Assembly: GCF_900167535.1 (NCBI RefSeq) | Contig: NZ_FUYE01000007.1 | Coordinates: forward strand, 124,001-188,000 | From: Prosthecobacter debontii | Lineage (GTDB): Bacteria; Verrucomicrobiota; Verrucomicrobiia; Verrucomicrobiales; Verrucomicrobiaceae | Direction: 5' to 3' | DNA: 64,000 bases | Shown: positions 12,005 to 47,966 of the stretch, piece after piece | How positions within the stretch are numbered: the first letter of the stretch is position 1 | How the letters are laid out: each line of letters opens with the position of its first letter | Program-made: the position numbers and the translations under genes | The notes under the pieces: generated by a model | What the model saw: only the letters and a program-made list of their open reading frames with translations | Databases searched by the model: none | Told to the model about the DNA's origin: nothing

Positions 12005-12176
12005 GAGAGGAGCGCGGACACTTTTGACCGCAGTCTATAACGTAGCGGTGTAGCCGCCATTCTTTCAATGCATAAGACCAAATGTAGGTGCCGTTTTTCT
12101 GCCAGACTTCTCATGAAGTTAGGCGACTTCGTCGCGATGGTTGAAGTTGCGGACAAGAGTGTCCGCGCTCCTCTCG
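12005..12176. repeat. Pair of inverted REP-like elements (REPIN-like)
   Basis: Two copies of one composite element face each other. The left copy (12005-12058) reads GAGAGGAGC, then palindrome GCGGACACTTTTGACCGC (12014-12031), then a second palindrome GCGG-TGTAG-CCGC (12045-12057). The right copy (12176-12122) is the reverse: palindrome GCGGACAAGAGTGTCCGC at 12149-12166 and GCGAC-TTC-GTCGC at 12123-12135. Together they sit just past the 3' end of the transposase gene, the usual place for elements mobilised by REP-associated transposases. Confidence 0.85.
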
Positions 12177-12178
12177 AG

Positions 12179-12787
12179 TCAGCTTCGCTCCCACAGGACG
12201 TATCCGGTTTTCAGGCTCGCCTTGAGAGGATTGTCACGGATATACGCCTTCACGGTTTTCAGATGATCGGGACTGCGGATAAGCCGGTCAAAGTAATCGG
12301 GTTGCCAGAAGGGGTCCAGGGCGCTGAGGCCCGCCTTGTGAATCAAACGGCTCGACACCCCTTTCCAGCCTTGAACGATGCCCGGCAATGACACTGCATC
12401 GTCCAAGGTAAAGAGAACATGCACATGGTTAGGCATGATCACATAACTTTGAAGCTGATACCGCTCTCCATCGAAATGATGCAGCCGCCCTTGCACAATC
12501 TCCGCAATGTCGGGCTGCCTCAACGCACAGCTTCCATGCCCGGCGTCCAAAGCTTCATCGAGCCTGTCAGCAAACAGTCCATGAAAACATACCTCGGTGA
12601 TTTCATCCCAGGGTTCAGGATGATTCAGAAGAAACCTTTCTCGCTCCGCCAGATAAGCGTTCAGCAGCACTTGCGGCAATGAATCTGCCAACCGGAAAGT
12701 TACAAACACCGGGACCTCACCCTGCTGCCAATGCGGCAGCTTGTGTTCCGTCTTCTCGATGTCTCCCCTCGGATTGAAGAACTTCAC
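12179..12787 (-). CDS. REP-associated tyrosine transposase (Y1 / IS200-like)
   Basis: 202 residues from a GTG at 12787. This start gives the typical RAYT opening KFFNPRGDIEKTEHKLPHW and places the palindrome at 12803-12820 upstream; the longer TTG frame would translate the palindrome itself. The Y1 signature is present: the metal-binding HxH in MPNHVHVLF, with the preceding YQLQSYVI strand, and the tyrosine helix near YFDRLIRS..HLKTVKAYIRDNP. Family knowledge: RAYTs are single-copy domesticated transposases that bind and cleave REP palindromes. Here both flanks carry such palindromes. GC is moderately lower than in the neighbouring housekeeping genes. Confidence 0.9.
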   Translation of the reverse strand: MKFFNPRGDIEKTEHKLPHWQQGEVPVFVTFRLADSLPQVLLNAYLAERERFLLNHPEPWDEITEVCFHGLFADRLDEALDAGHGSCALRQPDIAEIVQGRLHHFDGERYQLQSYVIMPNHVHVLFTLDDAVSLPGIVQGWKGVSSRLIHKAGLSALDPFWQPDYFDRLIRSPDHLKTVKAYIRDNPLKASLKTGYVLWERS

Positions 12788-12793
12788 GCCCCT

Positions 12794-12846
12794 GAGAGGA
12801 GCGCGGAGACTCTTCTCCGCAATCAAAACCTAGGCGGCGAAGCCGC
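12794..12846 (+). repeat. REP-like element upstream of the transposase gene
   Basis: Same composite structure as at 12005: GAGAGGAGC, palindrome GCGGAGACTCTTCTCCGC (12803-12820), a spacer, then GCGGC-GAA-GCCGC (12834-12846). The stem differs from the other copies but is still perfectly paired, and the ACTCTT loop is kept. Confidence 0.85.
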
Positions 12847-13727: not shown

Positions 13728-13745
13728 GCGGTCAAGAGTGACCGC
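13728..13745 (-). repeat. REP-like palindrome downstream of carB
   Basis: GCGGTCAAGAGTGACCGC, followed by the GCTCC flank seen in the copies near the transposase, on the same strand orientation as the 12149 copy. The second palindrome of the composite element is degenerate here. It lies 20 bp past the carB stop codon and could help end or stabilise that transcript. Confidence 0.8.
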
Positions 13746-38020: not shown

Positions 38021-41000
38021 TCACTCCCAGCGCAAATAATCCAGCGCAAACATCAGGGCAGGTTTGGCCGCAGCGTTGTGGCCTTGGATCGTCACCACCA
38101 GTTCACACTCGCCCGGGGGTAAATCAAACTCTCCCAACTGCAGCTCGGGAGTATTCACAACCTGGGGGTCGTAGAGATCCAAGTCGCCAAGAGCACAGGC
38201 TTGGCCCGCCACTTGAAAGCTCACGATGCCGTAGTCGGGGGCCTTGGTGAAAACCGCGTGCAGCTTCTGTTTACCGGGCTGGGTTTTGGTGAAGCGAATC
38301 TTGAGGGTATTGCCGACCTTGCCGCCCGTCCACCACAGGTGCTGATCACCGCTCCAGTGCCCTTCTTTGAAGTTGCCCATGGGTTGGACTTTCGCCTTGC
38401 CAATGCTCGCTTCGGTTTTGAGTTTCTCACCTTCTTGAGCGCCTTTGATGGACGTTCCCTTGGAGGCTGAGGTTTGACTCTGGAGATACTTCACGAGATG
38501 GAGCAGCGAATCCGCAGGCAGGGCATCGAACAGCCCCTCCGGCATGGTGCTCACGGGAGATACCGTGCGCTTTTTGATCTCGGCTTTCGTGACCATTTGC
38601 TCGATCCCTCCCGGCATCGCCACGCGATAAGCGGCGGCGGTTTCTTCTTTGATCACGCCACTGGCAATTCGCCCATCTTGAAGTTCGAAGATGTTGAGCT
38701 GGTAGTCTTTGCCAATGACGGCATTCGGGTCCAGCACGTTGTCCAGAAGGTAATCCAGATCACCGCGATTGGAGCCTGTCAAATCCGGGCCCACATCCTG
38801 ACCTTCACCTAACAAACGATGGCATGTTCCGCAGGTGGCGCTGAAGATGAGCTTACCCTGCTTCGCATCGGCCCGCGCCAGAGCTTCTTTGGAAAGGGTG
38901 GTGCGGAACTTGACCTTCCGCTGCTCCAGATCGGGCTTCGGCGCATTGAGATCCCCCCAGACCTGAGGGATGAGGCGGCGGACTTCCGCATCTTTCAGCG
39001 CATCCATTTGACGAACCAGGAAGGGCGAGAGTGCAGAACGCGCCACCTTGCCCTCCTTCACCGCCAGCAGCAGTCCGCGAGCTCCCGCAGGGGTGGTGGC
39101 CAGGGTGTTTATGACATCGGTTTGAAGGTTGGCATCGAAGGAAGCAAACTTCTCCAGCAGCAGGGCGGGTGTATCCTCATGAGGCAGGGTGGCCAGGGCT
39201 TGAACGACCCGGCGAATCAGGGTCTTGTCTTCGCCTTGCAGCAGTTGGTGGAGTAAGCCCGCCGTCTGGGCATCGCGCACTTGCATGAGGATGCGCAAAG
39301 CCGCCTCCCGCTGGGCCAAAGAGGACTGTGAAACCAAGGTCTGACGGTAGGCGGCCAGGGCTGTTTCCACCCCCATGAAGGCTTCCAACTCCTGAACCAG
39401 ATCCGACGCGCCCAGTTGCGTTTTCCACTCGGGCCAGGCTGACGGCAAAGCCACCTTGCCCCCTGCCCTGGCGGCTTCCACCACGGTGCGCAGCAGGGTT
39501 TCCCTCTGAGCGGCATCGGGCGACTGTGCTGCGATCCCGAGCAAAGCCTCACGTCCCTTTTCCTCGCTGCCCAAACGTCGATAAATGAACTCCGTCACCG
39601 TGGGCATCTTCGAGGCCGTCGCGAGTTTCAGCCCTGCTTCCGCATCGGCTCCCACGACTGGCTCGATGCCATACCAGATGAGCAGCGGGATGTAAGGATC
39701 ATCCTTGTCCTCCTCATGATGGAGCAGAGCGGTGGCGATGTCCGAGCGGCTCTCCAGAGGCAGACGCTGAAGCGCGGAGGCCAACTCGCGACGAACGACG
39801 GGGGAGGCATCCTGCTTGGCCAGCTCGCTCAAGCCGGTGCTGCTCGATCCCGCAGCCTTGGCCCGCACTTGCCAGGCCCGCAAATGATCAAAGCCTTCAT
39901 TGGCTTTCGGGGTGGCGATGGGCGTAGTTCCTCCTGCACTCAAGGATAACCAAAGGGAGCGAAGCGCTGAGGTTTCTTGAGTCGAGGGTGTCCTCTCCAA
40001 AATGGGAGCGATGCTCGCAAAGCGGCTCGTCTCCACGGTTGTTCTCTCCATGAGCACTCGCTTGGCCATCCGCGCGAACCACTCGTTCTCCGTCTGCACC
40101 GCGAGCCGCACCAGCGACTCATCACTTTCCTGAGTCAGATCAAACGGTGCCTGCGGGAACTGGAGCGCATGCCCCTCCTTGCGGGCAGGAGTGCCCGCAT
40201 CACTTGGACCATAACTCACCCGATAGATTCGCCCATTGCTGCGATCCCACATCTCAATCGCATTGCTGCCGCGATGGCAGACCTGTTTATCACTCCAATC
40301 GCTGACGTACAGAGAGCCATCCGGCCCGACTTTTTGAGTCACGGGTATAAAATACATGTCATTAGACCGCAGGAAGTCGCTGCCATGGCGGCCGATGTAG
40401 GTGCTGCCCTTCGGATCGAGGTAATTGTTCACCAGACGATGCCCATGCAGGTTGCCAAACAGGAGTTGATTGCGATAGCTGGCCGGGAACTGGTCGCTCT
40501 GATAGATGGCTAAACCGCAGTGGGCATGACCGCCTCCGGCTTGATTCGTATCATCGGCGACGATGCCTCCCTCACGTCGGGCACCCCAATGCGCATTGGC
40601 GCGAATGTCCCCCGCATAATGGGCATGGTCAGCAATAGTCTTGATGTCGTCGTAGGTGTAGGGATTGAAGTGCTGCCCCGCCTGCCGGAAGTAGCGCCCG
40701 CCCGGCACGATGTGATACAGATGCGGGATCACACAGGCGGTCACAAAAAACTCGCCATGCTCATCGTAATCCAGCCCCCAGGGATTACTCGTGCCATGGG
40801 CAAAGACTTCGAAGACATGCCGCACTGGATGATAGCGCCAGACGCAGGCATTCAGGGGTTCACGCTGCTCGTCGGGCGTGCCCACCTTGCCTACCTTGGA
40901 GTGTGTAAAGACACCCTGACAGCCATACAGCCAACCGTCCGGTCCCCAGATGAAGCTGTTCAGCGTCTCATGCGTATCTTGAGACCCCCAGCCATCCAGC

Positions 41001-42724
41001 AAGGCATACGCGGTGAATTTTAAACCGGGCACTTGGGGAAAAGCGGCATAACTCTCGTGTTTCTGATCCGGCACATCATCACGATCTGCATCCGGGATGA
41101 ACATCAGATAAGGCGCGGCCCCCACCCACACCCCCCCGAAGCCGATCTCAATGCCACTGGCCAGGCTGATGCCTTCTGCGAAGACCTTGCGGGTCTCGAA
41201 CTTGCCATTGCCATCCTTGTCCTCAAAGATCAGGATGCGGTCCTGCCCAGCCCCAGGTTCACGGGGTTTCGGGTAGCTGTTGCCCTCGATCACCCAGAGG
41301 CGGCCCCGTTCATCCCAAGTCATGGCGATGGGCTGCACCACCTCTGGCTCCGACGCGATCAGTTCGGCTTTGAAACCCGCAGGCAGTTGCAGGTTCTTGA
41401 CCGCGTCTTGCGGAGATTGGCCCGCTTGATAGTCGCTCTGCGGCATCAGGCCGGGGCCATACAGTTTCTTGGGGCGCATTTGTTCGGCAAGCTCGGGGCT
41501 CACCTCCTGCCGCTCCTGGAGCAACACATACACCCCGCTTTTGTTGCCCACGATGATGTCCTGCAGCTGATCGCCATTCACATCCCCGGTCTGCACATCC
41601 ACACCCACACCGCTTTCGGCATCGACGAGGTGCGGGATAAACTCCACCCCACCCTTGCCATCGCGCTTGGTTTGAAACCAATACACCACCCGAGCCCCGT
41701 GCTCATCGGGATCGCCATGGCCATTGTGAGCCCAGTAGCGCTTGCCGGTGACGAGGTCCTTCACCCCATCTCCATCCACATCCACCAGGGACATGGCATG
41801 CGGCTGACTGAAGACGATGCCATAGTCGTTCTCCCAGGGCTGCTCACCCACCAGCGTGCGCTTTTCCCAAGTGGGGTGGGCACTTTTGCCCGCCGGATCC
41901 GAAGTGCGGGTAGGAGTGCCCGCATCACTGCGATTCATAAACACAGCCACCCCATAGCGATGCGCGGACAAAGCGGTCGCCACATCATTGCGGCCATCGC
42001 CATCGAAGTCATAGGCGAACATCTGCGCCCCGCCCCCGACTCCGGCGGCAAAGTTGTGTTGCGTCCAGGTGTCTCCACTTCCGGCCTGCCACCAGCGGCG
42101 AGCTTCCAGCAGATCCATTTTCCCATCGCCATCCACATCTCCCACGCCAAGGCCATGGGTGAACTTGGCCACCTTCATATCACCCGTCACCGCATGGAAG
42201 GTCCACTTCTCCGTGGGCTTGCTCCAGTCCGGTGCAAACCAGCCAAAGCGGCCTCCGGTGCTGCAGACGATCTCCGGTTTGCCATCGCCAGTGATATCGG
42301 TGAAGACGGGGGATTCATTGTCCACGACATCGGCGACGATGTGCATGGCCCAGGGAGTGTCTTTGTCTTGGTCAAACCGACCCGGGTTCAGATACAGCCG
42401 GGCTTCCTTCCCAGGAAAACCCAACACGAGAAGGTCCTGCCAGCCATCGCCATTGAAATCGTGGGGATAGCTAAAGAAGTTGTCGGAATAACCATGGATG
42501 CTAAAAACCTTCGGCTCGTAAAACGCGTGCGCTTTTTTCCAATCCGGCCCCTCATACCAAAACGGGCCGCTGATGATGTCCATGTGGCCATCTTTGTTCA
42601 GGTCTGCATAGGTGGCCCCTTCAGCGTAAAACTGGTCCGTCAACTGGACACGCTGCCAGGAAATGAGGGTCTCCGCCTGGAGCAGGGACACACTGGCGAG
42701 AGCGAGAAGGAACAGGCTTTTCAT
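38021..42724 (-). CDS. VCBS-repeat / PVC-type dehydrogenase / haem c fusion protein
   Basis: 1567 residues with a signal peptide (MKSLFLLALASVSLLQA). In order: FG-GAP/VCBS repeats at about 20-430 (ADLNKDGHMDIISG, VDVDGDGVKDLVTG), a PVC-type membrane-bound dehydrogenase beta-propeller at about 435-860 (LPAGFKAELIASEPEVVQPI), an alpha-helical HEAT-like region about 880-1250, a single haem-binding cytochrome domain about 1285-1430 (CGTCH near residue 1298), and a C-terminal beta-sandwich resembling a carbohydrate-binding module to 1567. The two REP-type palindromes at 41906 and 40181 lie inside the frame. Likely a periplasmic sugar-oxidising dehydrogenase with its own electron acceptor; substrate unknown. 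Confidence 0.9.
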   Translation of the reverse strand: MKSLFLLALASVSLLQAETLISWQRVQLTDQFYAEGATYADLNKDGHMDIISGPFWYEGPDWKKAHAFYEPKVFSIHGYSDNFFSYPHDFNGDGWQDLLVLGFPGKEARLYLNPGRFDQDKDTPWAMHIVADVVDNESPVFTDITGDGKPEIVCSTGGRFGWFAPDWSKPTEKWTFHAVTGDMKVAKFTHGLGVGDVDGDGKMDLLEARRWWQAGSGDTWTQHNFAAGVGGGAQMFAYDFDGDGRNDVATALSAHRYGVAVFMNRSDAGTPTRTSDPAGKSAHPTWEKRTLVGEQPWENDYGIVFSQPHAMSLVDVDGDGVKDLVTGKRYWAHNGHGDPDEHGARVVYWFQTKRDGKGGVEFIPHLVDAESGVGVDVQTGDVNGDQLQDIIVGNKSGVYVLLQERQEVSPELAEQMRPKKLYGPGLMPQSDYQAGQSPQDAVKNLQLPAGFKAELIASEPEVVQPIAMTWDERGRLWVIEGNSYPKPREPGAGQDRILIFEDKDGNGKFETRKVFAEGISLASGIEIGFGGVWVGAAPYLMFIPDADRDDVPDQKHESYAAFPQVPGLKFTAYALLDGWGSQDTHETLNSFIWGPDGWLYGCQGVFTHSKVGKVGTPDEQREPLNACVWRYHPVRHVFEVFAHGTSNPWGLDYDEHGEFFVTACVIPHLYHIVPGGRYFRQAGQHFNPYTYDDIKTIADHAHYAGDIRANAHWGARREGGIVADDTNQAGGGHAHCGLAIYQSDQFPASYRNQLLFGNLHGHRLVNNYLDPKGSTYIGRHGSDFLRSNDMYFIPVTQKVGPDGSLYVSDWSDKQVCHRGSNAIEMWDRSNGRIYRVSYGPSDAGTPARKEGHALQFPQAPFDLTQESDESLVRLAVQTENEWFARMAKRVLMERTTVETSRFASIAPILERTPSTQETSALRSLWLSLSAGGTTPIATPKANEGFDHLRAWQVRAKAAGSSSTGLSELAKQDASPVVRRELASALQRLPLESRSDIATALLHHEEDKDDPYIPLLIWYGIEPVVGADAEAGLKLATASKMPTVTEFIYRRLGSEEKGREALLGIAAQSPDAAQRETLLRTVVEAARAGGKVALPSAWPEWKTQLGASDLVQELEAFMGVETALAAYRQTLVSQSSLAQREAALRILMQVRDAQTAGLLHQLLQGEDKTLIRRVVQALATLPHEDTPALLLEKFASFDANLQTDVINTLATTPAGARGLLLAVKEGKVARSALSPFLVRQMDALKDAEVRRLIPQVWGDLNAPKPDLEQRKVKFRTTLSKEALARADAKQGKLIFSATCGTCHRLLGEGQDVGPDLTGSNRGDLDYLLDNVLDPNAVIGKDYQLNIFELQDGRIASGVIKEETAAAYRVAMPGGIEQMVTKAEIKKRTVSPVSTMPEGLFDALPADSLLHLVKYLQSQTSASKGTSIKGAQEGEKLKTEASIGKAKVQPMGNFKEGHWSGDQHLWWTGGKVGNTLKIRFTKTQPGKQKLHAVFTKAPDYGIVSFQVAGQACALGDLDLYDPQVVNTPELQLGEFDLPPGECELVVTIQGHNAAAKPALMFALDYLRWE
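40181..40198 (-). repeat. REP-like palindrome inside a coding region (copy 1)
   Basis: On the coding strand GCGGGCACTCCTGCCCGC, with a conserved flank AAGTGAT before it. It is translated in the host frame as SDAGTPAR, near residue 842. Stem pairing is perfect and the ACTCCT loop is that of the intergenic copy at 45227-45244. Confidence 0.88.
41906..41923 (-). repeat. REP-like palindrome inside a coding region (copy 2)
   Basis: On the coding strand GCGGGCACTCCTACCCGC, with the same AGTGAT flank. Read in the same frame as copy 1, it gives SDAGTPTR near residue 267, in the VCBS region of the same gene. One base of the stem is changed, leaving one unpaired position. Confidence 0.88.
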
Positions 42725-45172: not shown

Positions 45173-45244
45173 ACGCTCGCAGGAGTGTAGCGTCTCGGAC
45201 CTCAAGACCATCCCACCGATTCATCTGCGGCCAGGAGTGGCCGC
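45173..45244. repeat. Two REP-like palindromes after gatA
   Basis: The first, at 45173-45193, is degenerate (ACGCT then AGGAGT then AGCGT). The second, GCGGCCAGGAGTGGCCGC at 45227-45244, is perfect and is followed by ATCACTT as in both coding copies; that flank supplies the stop codon of the next gene on the minus strand. It also lies past the gatA stop and can act as a terminator for both converging genes. Confidence 0.85.
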
Positions 45245-45245
45245 A

Positions 45246-47966
45246 TCACTTCTTGGAGAATTCCTTGTCGAGCGCGTCGAGGTATCTGGAGATGGCATCC
45301 GTGCGCTCTGGCAGCTCATTTTGGATGGTCTCGGGCAGCTTCAGATAATCCTCGAACAGACCCGACATGGCAGGGGTGTCATTCGCCTCGTGCAGGTCCA
45401 GGAGATCACGGATGGCATTGCTTTTGGTTAGGGCCTCTTGAGCACGTGCTCGCATGGTTTTGAGACGGGCATCCATGCCCTTGGTCTTGCCTTTATTGAG
45501 ATCCTCTAACACCTGGATGTAATCGACCACGATAGGCCGGAAAAGCACCGCTGCACGTGTTTGCAACGCCCCCAGGGCATTCACATTGCGCTGGATGATG
45601 CTCGGGAAATCCTTGCGCTTGATCACGGCGGCGTAGTCCTCAATGGGAATCTCTGCCGCCACGGTGGTTTCGTTCTTGGGCGAGGACTTCGGGGCCGGGG
45701 CCGGTGTGGGTTTGGGCTTCGGACTTGGACGCGGGGCGGGTTCGTCGGGGATGCTGGGCGGAGCCTCAGGCATGGGGGCCTCTTCTGGGCCGGTGGCCTC
45801 GGTGGATTCCTTTTTATCGCCACTGAAGAGATGCAAGCCCAGGAAGGAACGCTTGGCCTTCTCCGGCTTCGCTTCTCCCCCTTCCTCCTCAGGGGCAGGC
45901 ATGGCTTCCTCCGCAGGAGCCGGAGGTGCAGGTGCTGGGGCTTCTTTGGTCTTCTTTGGCTCGGCCTTGGGCTCGGGTTCAGGTTTTTTCGGCGCTTCCG
46001 GTTCGGCGGGATCTGACTCGGGTTTCTTTTTGCCAAACAGGCCGAAGAAACGTTTTTTCTCCGAGGCCTTCTCTTCGGCCTCGACCGCTACTTCCTGATA
46101 AACCATGGCGATCAGAGGCGTGCCTGCCCGGAGCTGAGCTTCGATGGACGGCGACTCCCGAGACAAGGCCACTTCTTGAGCCGGAGCCTCGGCGGTGTCA
46201 TGGGCAGACGCATCCGCTGGAGGGGCTTCTTTCTCTTTCTCCTTCTCCTTTTTACCGCCCCGAAACCAGTTCATGGGATTGAGGTTGGAGGGTTTCTTTT
46301 CGGCTTCCGGCTCGCTCGGGGTAGGCTCGGGCGCCGGTGTGGGCTTGGCGGCAGCTGCGGGTTTGGCCGGAGCTTTCGGTTCCGGTTTGGGCTGCGGTTT
46401 GACTTTTTCCTCAGTTTCTGGAACGGCTGCGGGCGCTGGAGCCGCAGCTTCTTTCTTGCCCTCGCCAAACCAACGATTCAGCAGCGGTGCGGGCTCTTTT
46501 TTCGTGGCGACCGGCATCTCAGGCGGCAGATCACTTGCTACGGGAGGCAGCGACTCTTCCTGAGCGGCGGGAGGCATGGCACTTTCCGCTTCGGCCTTCG
46601 CGGCAGCTTCGATGGCTTCGGTGATGGCCTCATCGCTGGATTTTTGCTTGGCAAAGGGATTGAGCCGCCCCAAGAAACCACGTTTTTCCTCGGATGGGCT
46701 TGCCATCAAGGGAGTGGGGTCGGCCGGTTTCTCTTCCGATTTGGCCTCACGGGTGGTCGAAAGTGCGACAGGAGTAGGTGCAGGGGCGGGTGCAGCGGGC
46801 GAGGATGTGGGTTCTGGCTTCCGCACCACCGGGGTGTGCCGAGAGGTCTGTGGGAGCTCGCTCGGCTTCGCCTGAAAACGGAGGATCAGCGCATCCTCCA
46901 GAGCGGCCAGGGTATCCTCAGGGCTGAGCGGCTCTGCAACCCCAGGGCTGGCCAGGGTGGCCAATTGCAGCGCCCACCATTTGTTCAGGCTGGCATCGCT
47001 GGCGGCAAAGTTGGGGAACCACTGATTGAGCAGCTCCCGCTCCGTGCGGGGATCGGTGGCCAGCGCGTTGAGAAACTTGCCCATGCGCAGACCGCCCTCC
47101 GGCTGATCCAGCAGAGCGAGCACCAGAGCGCAGCAAGACGTTTGGTAAATGGTGCGGGAGAGCGCATCCTCAATGGCCGAAGCAGGAGCCTCGATGATGT
47201 CCTCGATGCCAAAGATTTTACCACTCTTGAAGATGGCGGCAAACAGCGCACTCGGCCGGGCGCGCTGACGGTATTCCCCAGCTTCCAAGACGCCTAAAAA
47301 CAACCAATCGGGCAGCAGCAGGGACCGCTTCGTGGCGATCTCTTTTTGATCCCGCAGGATGCGCTCGGCCAACAAGGCCCGCACGAGTTCCTTGCGCAGG
47401 TCCTCGGGCCGCAGATCTGGCCGCATGCTCACATTCACCTGGATGTGAAAGCCCCCATGAGAGAGCTGGGAGATCGTCGTGGAGACGGGTTTATCCGCCT
47501 TGCGCGCCGTCTCACCGGAGGTGACCAGCACCACGATGGGCAAGACCCAAGGCTGCTTATCTTTGAGGAGATCCCGCAGGTCTTTCGCGATGTCTTCGCA
47601 CTTGCTGGACAGGGCGCTGCGGATGGTCAGATCATCCCCATGAATGATGAATTGCCCGGTGCTGCTGGTGGAGGAGCCGGGCTTGGCGGCCGCCATCGGC
47701 ACTGCGGGCACGGCTTTCGTCTCCCCAGCCAGGGGCATGGCGGGGGCACCCTCTGTGGGCGTGGCCATGCTTGGAGGCGGCAGGCTGGGCTGGGCTTGCA
47801 ATTGCCCCGGCAGCGGCGGCGGCAGCGGCAGCACGGGGCCTCCTGCTGGCAGGCCAGGGGCTGCTGGGGGCGGAATCACACCGACAGGGGGCAGCACAGC
47901 TTCCTGGGCGCGAAGGCTGGCGATAGAGACAAAAAGGGCGGTAGCAAAGGCAACTGCGCGAAACAT
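45246..47966 (-). CDS. Exported low-complexity protein with five short repeat modules
   Basis: 906 residues. A signal peptide (MFRAVAFATALFVSIASLRAQ) is followed by a Pro-rich stretch, a folded domain (about 105-350, with TIRSALSSKCEDIAKDLRDL, then LRKELVRALLAERILRDQ, ATKRSLLLPDWLFLGVLEAG), and a long Ala/Pro/Glu/Lys region (about 385-770) with five aromatic-basic modules. These are GFLGRLNPFAKQK (near 425), LLNRWFGEGKKEA (494), PMNWFRGGKKEK (559), FFGLFGKKKPES (637) and FLGLHLFSGDKKES (702). A helical C-terminus with QLRAG-like and AEIPIEDYAAVIKRKDFPS segments ends the protein. I recognise no family. Operon with the gene at 47979. Confidence 0.75.
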   Translation of the reverse strand: MFRAVAFATALFVSIASLRAQEAVLPPVGVIPPPAAPGLPAGGPVLPLPPPLPGQLQAQPSLPPPSMATPTEGAPAMPLAGETKAVPAVPMAAAKPGSSTSSTGQFIIHGDDLTIRSALSSKCEDIAKDLRDLLKDKQPWVLPIVVLVTSGETARKADKPVSTTISQLSHGGFHIQVNVSMRPDLRPEDLRKELVRALLAERILRDQKEIATKRSLLLPDWLFLGVLEAGEYRQRARPSALFAAIFKSGKIFGIEDIIEAPASAIEDALSRTIYQTSCCALVLALLDQPEGGLRMGKFLNALATDPRTERELLNQWFPNFAASDASLNKWWALQLATLASPGVAEPLSPEDTLAALEDALILRFQAKPSELPQTSRHTPVVRKPEPTSSPAAPAPAPTPVALSTTREAKSEEKPADPTPLMASPSEEKRGFLGRLNPFAKQKSSDEAITEAIEAAAKAEAESAMPPAAQEESLPPVASDLPPEMPVATKKEPAPLLNRWFGEGKKEAAAPAPAAVPETEEKVKPQPKPEPKAPAKPAAAAKPTPAPEPTPSEPEAEKKPSNLNPMNWFRGGKKEKEKEKEAPPADASAHDTAEAPAQEVALSRESPSIEAQLRAGTPLIAMVYQEVAVEAEEKASEKKRFFGLFGKKKPESDPAEPEAPKKPEPEPKAEPKKTKEAPAPAPPAPAEEAMPAPEEEGGEAKPEKAKRSFLGLHLFSGDKKESTEATGPEEAPMPEAPPSIPDEPAPRPSPKPKPTPAPAPKSSPKNETTVAAEIPIEDYAAVIKRKDFPSIIQRNVNALGALQTRAAVLFRPIVVDYIQVLEDLNKGKTKGMDARLKTMRARAQEALTKSNAIRDLLDLHEANDTPAMSGLFEDYLKLPETIQNELPERTDAISRYLDALDKEFSKK

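What the first reader, a model, noticed from the sequence alone, without database searches (positions are those of the whole stretch)
40181..41923. Repeat elements inserted in frame within a coding sequence, giving the peptide SDAGTPxR
Two copies of the palindrome family lie inside the gene at 38021-42724, about 1.7 kb apart, in the same orientation and reading frame, encoding SDAGTPAR (near residue 842) and SDAGTPTR (near residue 267). They include the AGTGAT flank that in the third copy (45227) makes a stop codon for a different gene. This resembles the Rickettsia palindromic elements, which add peptide inserts to proteins. It would be a protein-invading repeat tied to a RAYT family in Verrucomicrobia.
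Basis: partly seen in the sequence, partly recalled or inferred. Interest (0 to 1): 0.8.

Follow-up and report, generated by a model that had tools for sequence, protein, structure and literature searches.

The report
Mobile palindromes translated inside proteins
Short palindromic DNA repeats that usually sit between genes have inserted in frame inside many protein genes of this bacterium and its relatives, mostly in the one reading frame that yields the harmless-looking peptide SDAGTPAR, so a mobile element seems to be adding bits of flexible linker to proteins.

Summary
Two REP copies lie in frame in the gene 38021-42724 (a PVC-type heme-binding CxxCH protein). Site 1 is really an inverted pair encoding 20 residues.

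Orthologues show lineage-specific presence or absence at both sites. Site 1 is 13 residues longer than in the 79%-identical orthologue and is a low-confidence loop on a predicted propeller.

It is not confined to one gene. Of 223 REP cores surveyed in loci of the genus (probably Prosthecobacter; loci fetched by DNA pattern), 84 lie in coding sequence, 73 of them in phase 0 (AGTPAR, or AGK/RSAR and ADKSVR for the inverted partner). Of 18 host clusters showing one frame, 14 use the SDAGTPAR strand and frame, with five frames open (binomial 2e-7). No target consensus flanks the element, so tolerance of the peptide is the likeliest cause.

A sister family (REP2) makes ~90-bp inverted pairs encoding GSAGTPAR...ADKSVRAPL in methyltransferases, a kinase and a DUF1553 protein, and flanks RAYT-like transposases. 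REP1 flanks one in a relative; none was found beside REP1 in this genome.

In-frame palindromes are known (Rickettsia RPEs; GTAG REPs in Opitutus terrae). This is a new family of a known kind with a clear frame filter.

The parts
38021..42724 (-). host gene: FG-GAP propeller + PVC-type heme-binding CxxCH protein (DUF7133, HEAT, cytochrome c), 1567 aa
   Evidence: ORF; Pfam PF13517, PF23500, PF00034 above cut-off, HEAT_2 below it; NCBIfam TIGR02604 and TIGR02603 above cut-off
41870..41929 (-). site 1: inverted REP1 pair read in frame, residues 266-285 SDAGTPTRTSDPAGKSAHPT
   Evidence: residues 268-282 at pLDDT < 50 in the predicted propeller
41905..41929 (-). site 1, first REP1 copy (AGTPAR orientation relative to the gene)
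41876..41893 (-). site 1, inverted partner core, two mismatches (reads AGKSAH)
40180..40204 (-). site 2: REP1 read in frame, SDAGTPAR starting at residue 841, in the stretch after GRIYRV between the DUF7133 and HEAT parts
   Evidence: the second structure model is too poor to add much
45226..45250 (+). third REP1 copy in the window; its AGTGAT foot supplies the TGA stop of the minus-strand gene 45246-47966
12182..12829 (-). RAYT-like Y1 transposase (open frame), REP2 copies on both sides
   Evidence: PF01797 over its cut-off; neighbours; NF047646 61.4 bits, below its cut-off of 80
12014..12031 (-). REP2 core beside the RAYT-like gene
12149..12166 (+). REP2 core beside the RAYT-like gene
12803..12820 (-). 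REP2-like core at the 5' end of the RAYT-like open frame
13728..13745 (+). further REP2 core, about 0.9 kb from the RAYT-like gene

Best explanation
REP1 (AGTGAT + 18-nt hairpin core + A) and its sister REP2 (GGGAGC/GAGGAGC foot, often as ~90-nt inverted pairs) are small, probably RAYT-mobilised elements. They land in genes as well as between them. Insertions survive where the protein has a flexible loop or interdomain linker, and mostly in the orientation and frame whose translation is hydrophilic, Cys-free and stop-free (SDAGTPAR / GSAGTPAR...GGEAA...ADKSVRAPL). The gene at 38021-42724 carries two such inserts. Shown here: the repeat family, in-frame location in many genes, frame and orientation bias, lineage-specific presence, transposase neighbours in several genomes. 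Inferred: mobilisation by RAYT, purifying selection as the cause of the frame bias, near-neutral effect on the protein.
For: Copy number with zero reversed-pattern hits in the own genome and 2 such hits in all over 48 genomes. Survey by DNA pattern: 84 of 223 cores coding by codon score of the flanks, the core itself not scored; AGTPAR strand ph0 45, ph1 5, ph2 0; other strand ph0 28, ph1 5, ph2 1. All 13 host proteins scanned besides the window's have Pfam domains (3, 10). 33 host clusters (84 coding + 4 uncertain cores); of 18 showing one frame 14 use the SDAGTPAR strand and frame, p = 2e-7 for 1 in 5. By element, orthologues not merged: 18 of 20 coding singles, and 26 of 33 coding dimers with both halves in phase 0. 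Favoured frames have GRAVY about -1 and no Cys. No consensus outside the element. Presence/absence with length gain: host site 1 and a DNA methyltransferase (+28 residues). Places: propeller loop of pLDDT < 50; end of the aldolase domain in an aldolase-SDR fusion; after GRIY/WRV in the window host, L164/L170 and L180. RAYT-like genes beside REP copies in nine loci.
Against: At the aldolase-SDR linker REP-bearing linkers are only about as long as REP-free ones, so simple insertion does not explain every site. Core codons are almost identical between species (45/45, 36/36, 36/36, 172/180) while aa-identical flanking codons agree only 60-73%, more than selection for a tolerated peptide alone predicts. 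One alternative frame of REP1, AGRSARIT, is also Cys-free and mildly hydrophilic (GRAVY -0.35), yet its phase is used by only 1 of 20 coding singles, so hydropathy alone does not explain the bias. No RAYT flanked by REP1 in this genome, and none of the 20 top-scoring RAYT-family loci of the genus (one of them in the own genome) had a core within the fetched stretch. RAYT model matched below cut-off. No transposition or expression was observed.
Confidence: 0.75

Rival explanations
1. The repeats are kept inside genes because the DNA or RNA hairpin does something (transcript processing, pausing, a protein or nuclease binding site), and the peptide is a by-product that must only be harmless.
For: Core DNA is almost invariant at synonymous positions between species while flanks diverge. 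The site 1 stretch folds more stably than its shuffles (z -2.8; 2 of 200 as good), the site 2 copy weakly so (z -2.1; 8 of 200).
Against: Most orthologues of the host gene lack the element at site 1. Hosts are unrelated in function. Identity between copies is also what recent or repeated insertion, or conversion, would give.
Confidence: 0.15
2. The peptides were adopted as useful linkers, so the inserts are kept by positive selection on the protein.
For: Site 1 is occupied in several lineages, by REP1 in some and REP2 in others. One insert in a DUF7133/cytochrome c protein is present in seven genomes: G000, G011, G013, G019, G039, G041, G046.
Against: Patchy presence, sister branches lacking it (G010 beside G011, G041 beside G019, in one tree whose support values I did not inspect), and visible decay (G005, G044). 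Unrelated sequences fill the same loop elsewhere.
Confidence: 0.07
3. The octapeptides are ordinary ancestral protein sequence that resembles the repeat by chance.
For: At the aldolase-SDR linker length is nearly constant between carriers and non-carriers.
Against: Exact 24-25-nt DNA repeats with flanks and inverted partners, also abundant in stretches scored non-coding; 0 reversed-pattern hits in this genome; presence/absence with length gain at other sites.
Confidence: 0.02

Closest known systems
Rickettsia palindromic elements (RPEs) and Wolbachia WPEs
   Same: Palindromic repeats inside ORFs without destroying the frame, in solvent-exposed regions, hot spots considered possible (PMC3767692 passages; PMC2229807 passages)
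   Different: RPEs are given there as about 105-150 bp; RPE-4 and RPE-6 belong to the CGTC class, which has no associated transposase (PMC3733652). The elements here are 25-nt units or ~60-90-nt inverted pairs with a GTGA or GGAG foot, found beside RAYT-like genes in relatives
Intragenic GTAG REPs, above all in Opitutus terrae (Verrucomicrobia)
   Same: RAYT-class REPs, single or dimer, inside genes of a bacterium of the same phylum; more than half of inserts are dimers or groups encoding 20-30 residues; some genes hit twice; REP ends supply stop codons (PMC3733652 sections 15 and 16 read)
   Different: Foot is not GTAG; other palindrome. The parts of that paper that I read give no frame count; its Additional file 3, which lists the peptides, was not seen
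REPINs
   Same: Two inverted REPs with a spacer, many copies; REP2 spacers often carry a hairpin-like GGCGGCGAAGCCGC
   Different: The best-known REPINs are extragenic (recalled); here about half of the 38 tight pairs found in the genus are inside genes

Membership tests
REP / REPIN (RAYT-associated repeats) | 20-40-nt imperfect palindrome in many copies genome-wide | tested here: met
   74 REP1 and 17 REP2 matches (up to 3 mismatches) in the own genome, control 0; the site 2 copy folds as a hairpin
REP / REPIN (RAYT-associated repeats) | inverted pairs with a spacer | tested here: met
   38 tight pairs in 16 of 48 genomes; none of that spacing class in the own genome, but looser or diverged inverted pairs there
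REP / REPIN (RAYT-associated repeats) | flank a RAYT gene | tested here: met
   REP copies beside RAYT-signature ORFs in nine loci, one of them this window's gene. REP1 only in L173 (G041). Not met for REP1 in the own genome, nor at the 20 top-scoring RAYT-family loci
REP / REPIN (RAYT-associated repeats) | transposase matches the RAYT model | tested here: inconclusive
   NF047646 60.6-64.3 bits for three proteins, below its cut-off of 80; Y1_Tnp PF01797 over cut-off for the window gene
GTAG REP superfamily | GTAG at the foot of the palindrome | tested here: not met
   REP1 foot is GTGA, REP2 foot GGAG at the same place
CGTC REPs / RPE-4, RPE-6 | CGTC tag, no transposase association | tested here: not met
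   No CGTC foot; RAYT neighbours in relatives
Rickettsia palindromic elements | in-frame insertion in protein genes | tested here: met
Rickettsia palindromic elements | insert in a solvent-exposed part of the fold | tested here: inconclusive
   One good model: site 1 loop at pLDDT < 50. Site 2 model poor, mean pLDDT 44. Others judged by domain borders only
Rickettsia palindromic elements | insert shown to be translated | not testable with these tools
   needs proteomics

The most novel reading that the evidence does not exclude
Genes are a main habitat of this element, not an accident: the REP sequence has been shaped so that one strand and frame reads as a harmless disordered linker (SDAGTPAR / GSAGTPAR...ADKSVRAPL), with both sister families converging on the same peptide, so that a selfish DNA survives by being a good spacer peptide.
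Probability: 0.2. Interest if true: 0.8.

Novelty: new member of a known kind. Interest (0 to 1): 0.55.

Why it matters
It extends protein-invading palindromes to another genus of Verrucomicrobiota, where the likely transposase class is in view and 48 related genomes give natural presence/absence series. That makes the old question of how selfish DNA adds new peptide to proteins, and what limits it, testable by counting frames, orientations and sites. It also warns annotators that SDAGTPAR-like stretches in these proteins are mobile DNA and not conserved motifs.

Tried and rejected
Other palindromes in the same loops: sequences such as SAGFQPAQ, QASGLPNATE and RSDLSDKSD fill the same loops in other species and looked like further repeat families. 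In 453 kb not chosen by REP pattern the patterns I tried for them were found 0 to 4 times, so this was dropped to a side note.

Target-site explanation for the frame bias: no consensus outside the element in coding or non-coding copies. Structure model of residues 437-1060: mean pLDDT 44, used only as weak support for a linker. The third sequence was a wrong stretch and is not used. The coding row at window 16382 (2 mismatches, no REP flank) was judged a chance match and left out of my count of intragenic sites in this genome.

Sampling limits: the survey is not a whole-genome census except roughly for the own genome. It used loci fetched by DNA pattern (own genome; G011 with 32 of its 39 exact cores; G010; the 38 tight pairs; first-listed cores of other genomes). 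L055, first fetched as a host-gene orthologue, was kept because its two pairs are among the 38. Loci fetched by peptide (L098-L118) and L185-L189 were left out. The coding call rests on my own codon score and thresholds (open frame of 120 aa or more, 25 residues each side). 'Single' means one exact core within 200 bp; some singles (L251, L252) have a diverged partner. The 18 one-frame clusters include uncertain cores and one half of a pair (L153).

Full report
What is there. The gene 38021-42724 (minus strand, 1567 aa) encodes an FG-GAP propeller joined to a PVC-type heme-binding CxxCH protein. It holds two copies of a 25-nt repeat, TGCGGGCAGGAGTGCCCGCATCACT, at 40180-40204 and 41905-41929; a third at 45226-45250 supplies the TGA stop of the neighbouring gene 45246-47966. 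The own genome (6.29 Mb, 56 contigs) has 74 matches at up to 3 mismatches and none to the reversed pattern. A sister family, REP2, with foot GAGGAGC/GGGAGC instead of AGTGAT, has 17. The shared core GCGGNCANGAGTGNCCGC is present in 45 of 48 genomes of the genus (reversed pattern: 2 hits in all) and 61 of 68 of the family, in 11 of 11 genera searched. One genome of the set (G023) has a contig with the number and length of a Prosthecobacter sp. MAG contig, so the genus is probably Prosthecobacter.

Site 1 is a pair. Twelve nt beyond the first core lies an inverted partner (41876-41893, two mismatches). Together they encode SDAGTPTRTSDPAGKSAHPT, residues 266-285. In the predicted propeller (mean pLDDT 77.6) residues 268-282 are below 50, between strands 259-264 and 286-293; the best Foldseek matches are CRTAC1, KICSTOR and integrin propellers. 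Site 2 is a copy beginning at residue 841, just after the conserved GRIYRV end of DUF7133 (residues 437-837).

Presence and absence. I compared 45 genes, one from each of 45 of the 48 genomes (G015, G017 and G031 were not included). At site 1 clear REP peptide is in eight (G000, G011, G013, G019, G037, G039, G040, G045), decayed remains in two (G005, G044), one has no data there (G024), and the other 34 have other, mostly shorter sequence. The near relatives G001 and G004 have 7 residues where the window has 20. REP1-type and REP2-type inserts occupy the same site in different lineages, interleaved with empty ones (FastTree, support values not inspected); identical REP1 inserts in G011, G019 and G039 may come from recombination or shared ancestry rather than independent insertion. 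At site 2 nine of the 45 show [AV]GT[PL][AV]R; G011 and G039 could not be read there by the pattern used, and G007 shows none in the alignment.

Not one gene but many. A peptide search found full REP2 pairs in frame in methyltransferases, a kinase, DUF1549/1553 proteins and others (21 matches in 13 of 48 genomes, three of them in open frames under 150 aa). Because that search is biased to one frame, I repeated it by DNA. Of 38 tight REP pairs in 16 of 48 genomes, 19 have best-scoring coding flanks on both sides in one frame that runs through the element: 17 read the first half in phase 0 (AGTPAR, ADTPVR or AGTLAR), and two orthologous ones (L164, L170) read the first half in another phase while the second half still reads ADKSVR. 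One of the 17, L158, has only two residues of open frame upstream.

Frame bias. Across loci fetched by DNA pattern there are 223 distinct exact cores: 84 coding, 4 uncertain, 135 not. Only the flanks were scored, not the core itself, though in dimers a flank contains the partner. Of the 84: AGTPAR strand phase 0 45, phase 1 5, phase 2 0; opposite strand phase 0 28, phase 1 5, phase 2 1. Phase 2 of the AGTPAR strand is closed in REP1 by a TGA. Grouping hosts by sequence (coding and uncertain together, 88 cores) gives 33 clusters; 27 contain the SDAGTPAR-type frame, and of 18 clusters showing only one frame 14 show that one, 2 opposite-strand phase 1, 1 opposite-strand phase 0 and 1 AGTPAR-strand phase 1. 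As elements, orthologues not merged: 53 of 146 are coding; 18 of 20 singles are in that frame; 26 of 33 dimers have both halves in phase 0. In G011 15 of 22 elements examined are coding; in G010 4 of 15; in the own genome 4 of 36 by exact cores plus one uncertain, and eight sites in six genes when up to two mismatches are allowed. The favoured peptides are hydrophilic and Cys-free; most alternatives have a stop or are hydrophobic, basic or Cys-rich, but AGRSARIT (opposite strand) is not, and is still rare in singles. Information content falls to background outside the element in both coding and non-coding REP1 copies, so a codon-phased target is unlikely.

Clean and unclean sites. A DNA methyltransferase carries the pair in G043 and G040 but not in G014 (34 residues against 6 between the same anchors, net +28). 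At the linker between the aldolase and dehydrogenase domains of a conserved fusion protein (the match to 3m4r ends at residue 236, at the insert), SD[AV]GTPAR stands in five of the 30 loci read (G011, G015, G038, G041, G046) and a REP2 pair in G033, but most REP-bearing linkers are about as long as REP-free ones. Insertion there was followed or accompanied by loss, or the other linkers are decayed copies.

Puzzle. In the host gene the core codons are identical between species in 45/45, 36/36, 36/36 and 172/180 comparisons, while aa-identical flanking codons agree in 387/536, 419/574 and 988/1636 (comparisons are not independent). Young age, copy-to-copy conversion, exchange between species or selection on the nucleic acid could each give this.

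Transposase. This window has a RAYT-like gene at 12182-12829 with REP2 cores on both sides. Similar ORFs lie between or beside REP copies in eight further loci, one of them (L173, G041) with REP1. The NCBIfam RAYT model is matched below cut-off. In the own genome no REP1 core lies close to any of the 10 Y1-transposase genes, the nearest being about 1.4 kb away, and the 20 top-scoring RAYT-family loci of the genus (one of them own) have no core in the stretch fetched.

Literature. PMC3733652 (sections 15 and 16 read, other passages seen) reports intragenic GTAG REPs with most cases in Opitutus terrae, also Verrucomicrobia, and CGTC ones in Rickettsia conorii. PMC3767692 and PMC2229807 (passages) describe the Rickettsia elements. 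Ogata 2002 is not held. Searches for the peptides (0 papers), for Prosthecobacter with palindromes (listing only) and for REP/RAYT with Verrucomicrobia (only PMC3733652) turned up no description of this family in the held library.

Noticed in passing
host-gene site 1 in L040, L046, L294, L296; site 2 in L042, L290, L293, L302; linker in L349, L367, L368: The same loops hold other foreign-looking in-frame sequences (QASGLPNATE, RSDLSDKSD, TSFPTR...TSWKTRS, SAGFQPAQ), some with short palindromes, perhaps further small repeat families.
   Followed up: partly
L153:1-130: A second REP1 inverted pair in the same gene, read SDAGTPAR...VRAGVPASL, so the second half is in a different phase.
   Followed up: no
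L063: A PSCyt1/DUF1549/DUF1553 protein of the own genome holds two separate in-frame REP1 pairs.
   Followed up: partly
G000:C13:121009-121714 (L084), G000:C6:105119-105318 (L070): Tandem arrays of REP1 at 136-137-nt and 35-nt spacing in the own genome.
   Followed up: no
L370, L371 (IMGVR_UViG_3300031857_000283): Two stretches of one viral-collection contig each hold an exact REP1 24-mer; it may be a prophage of, or a stray contig from, a relative.
   Followed up: no
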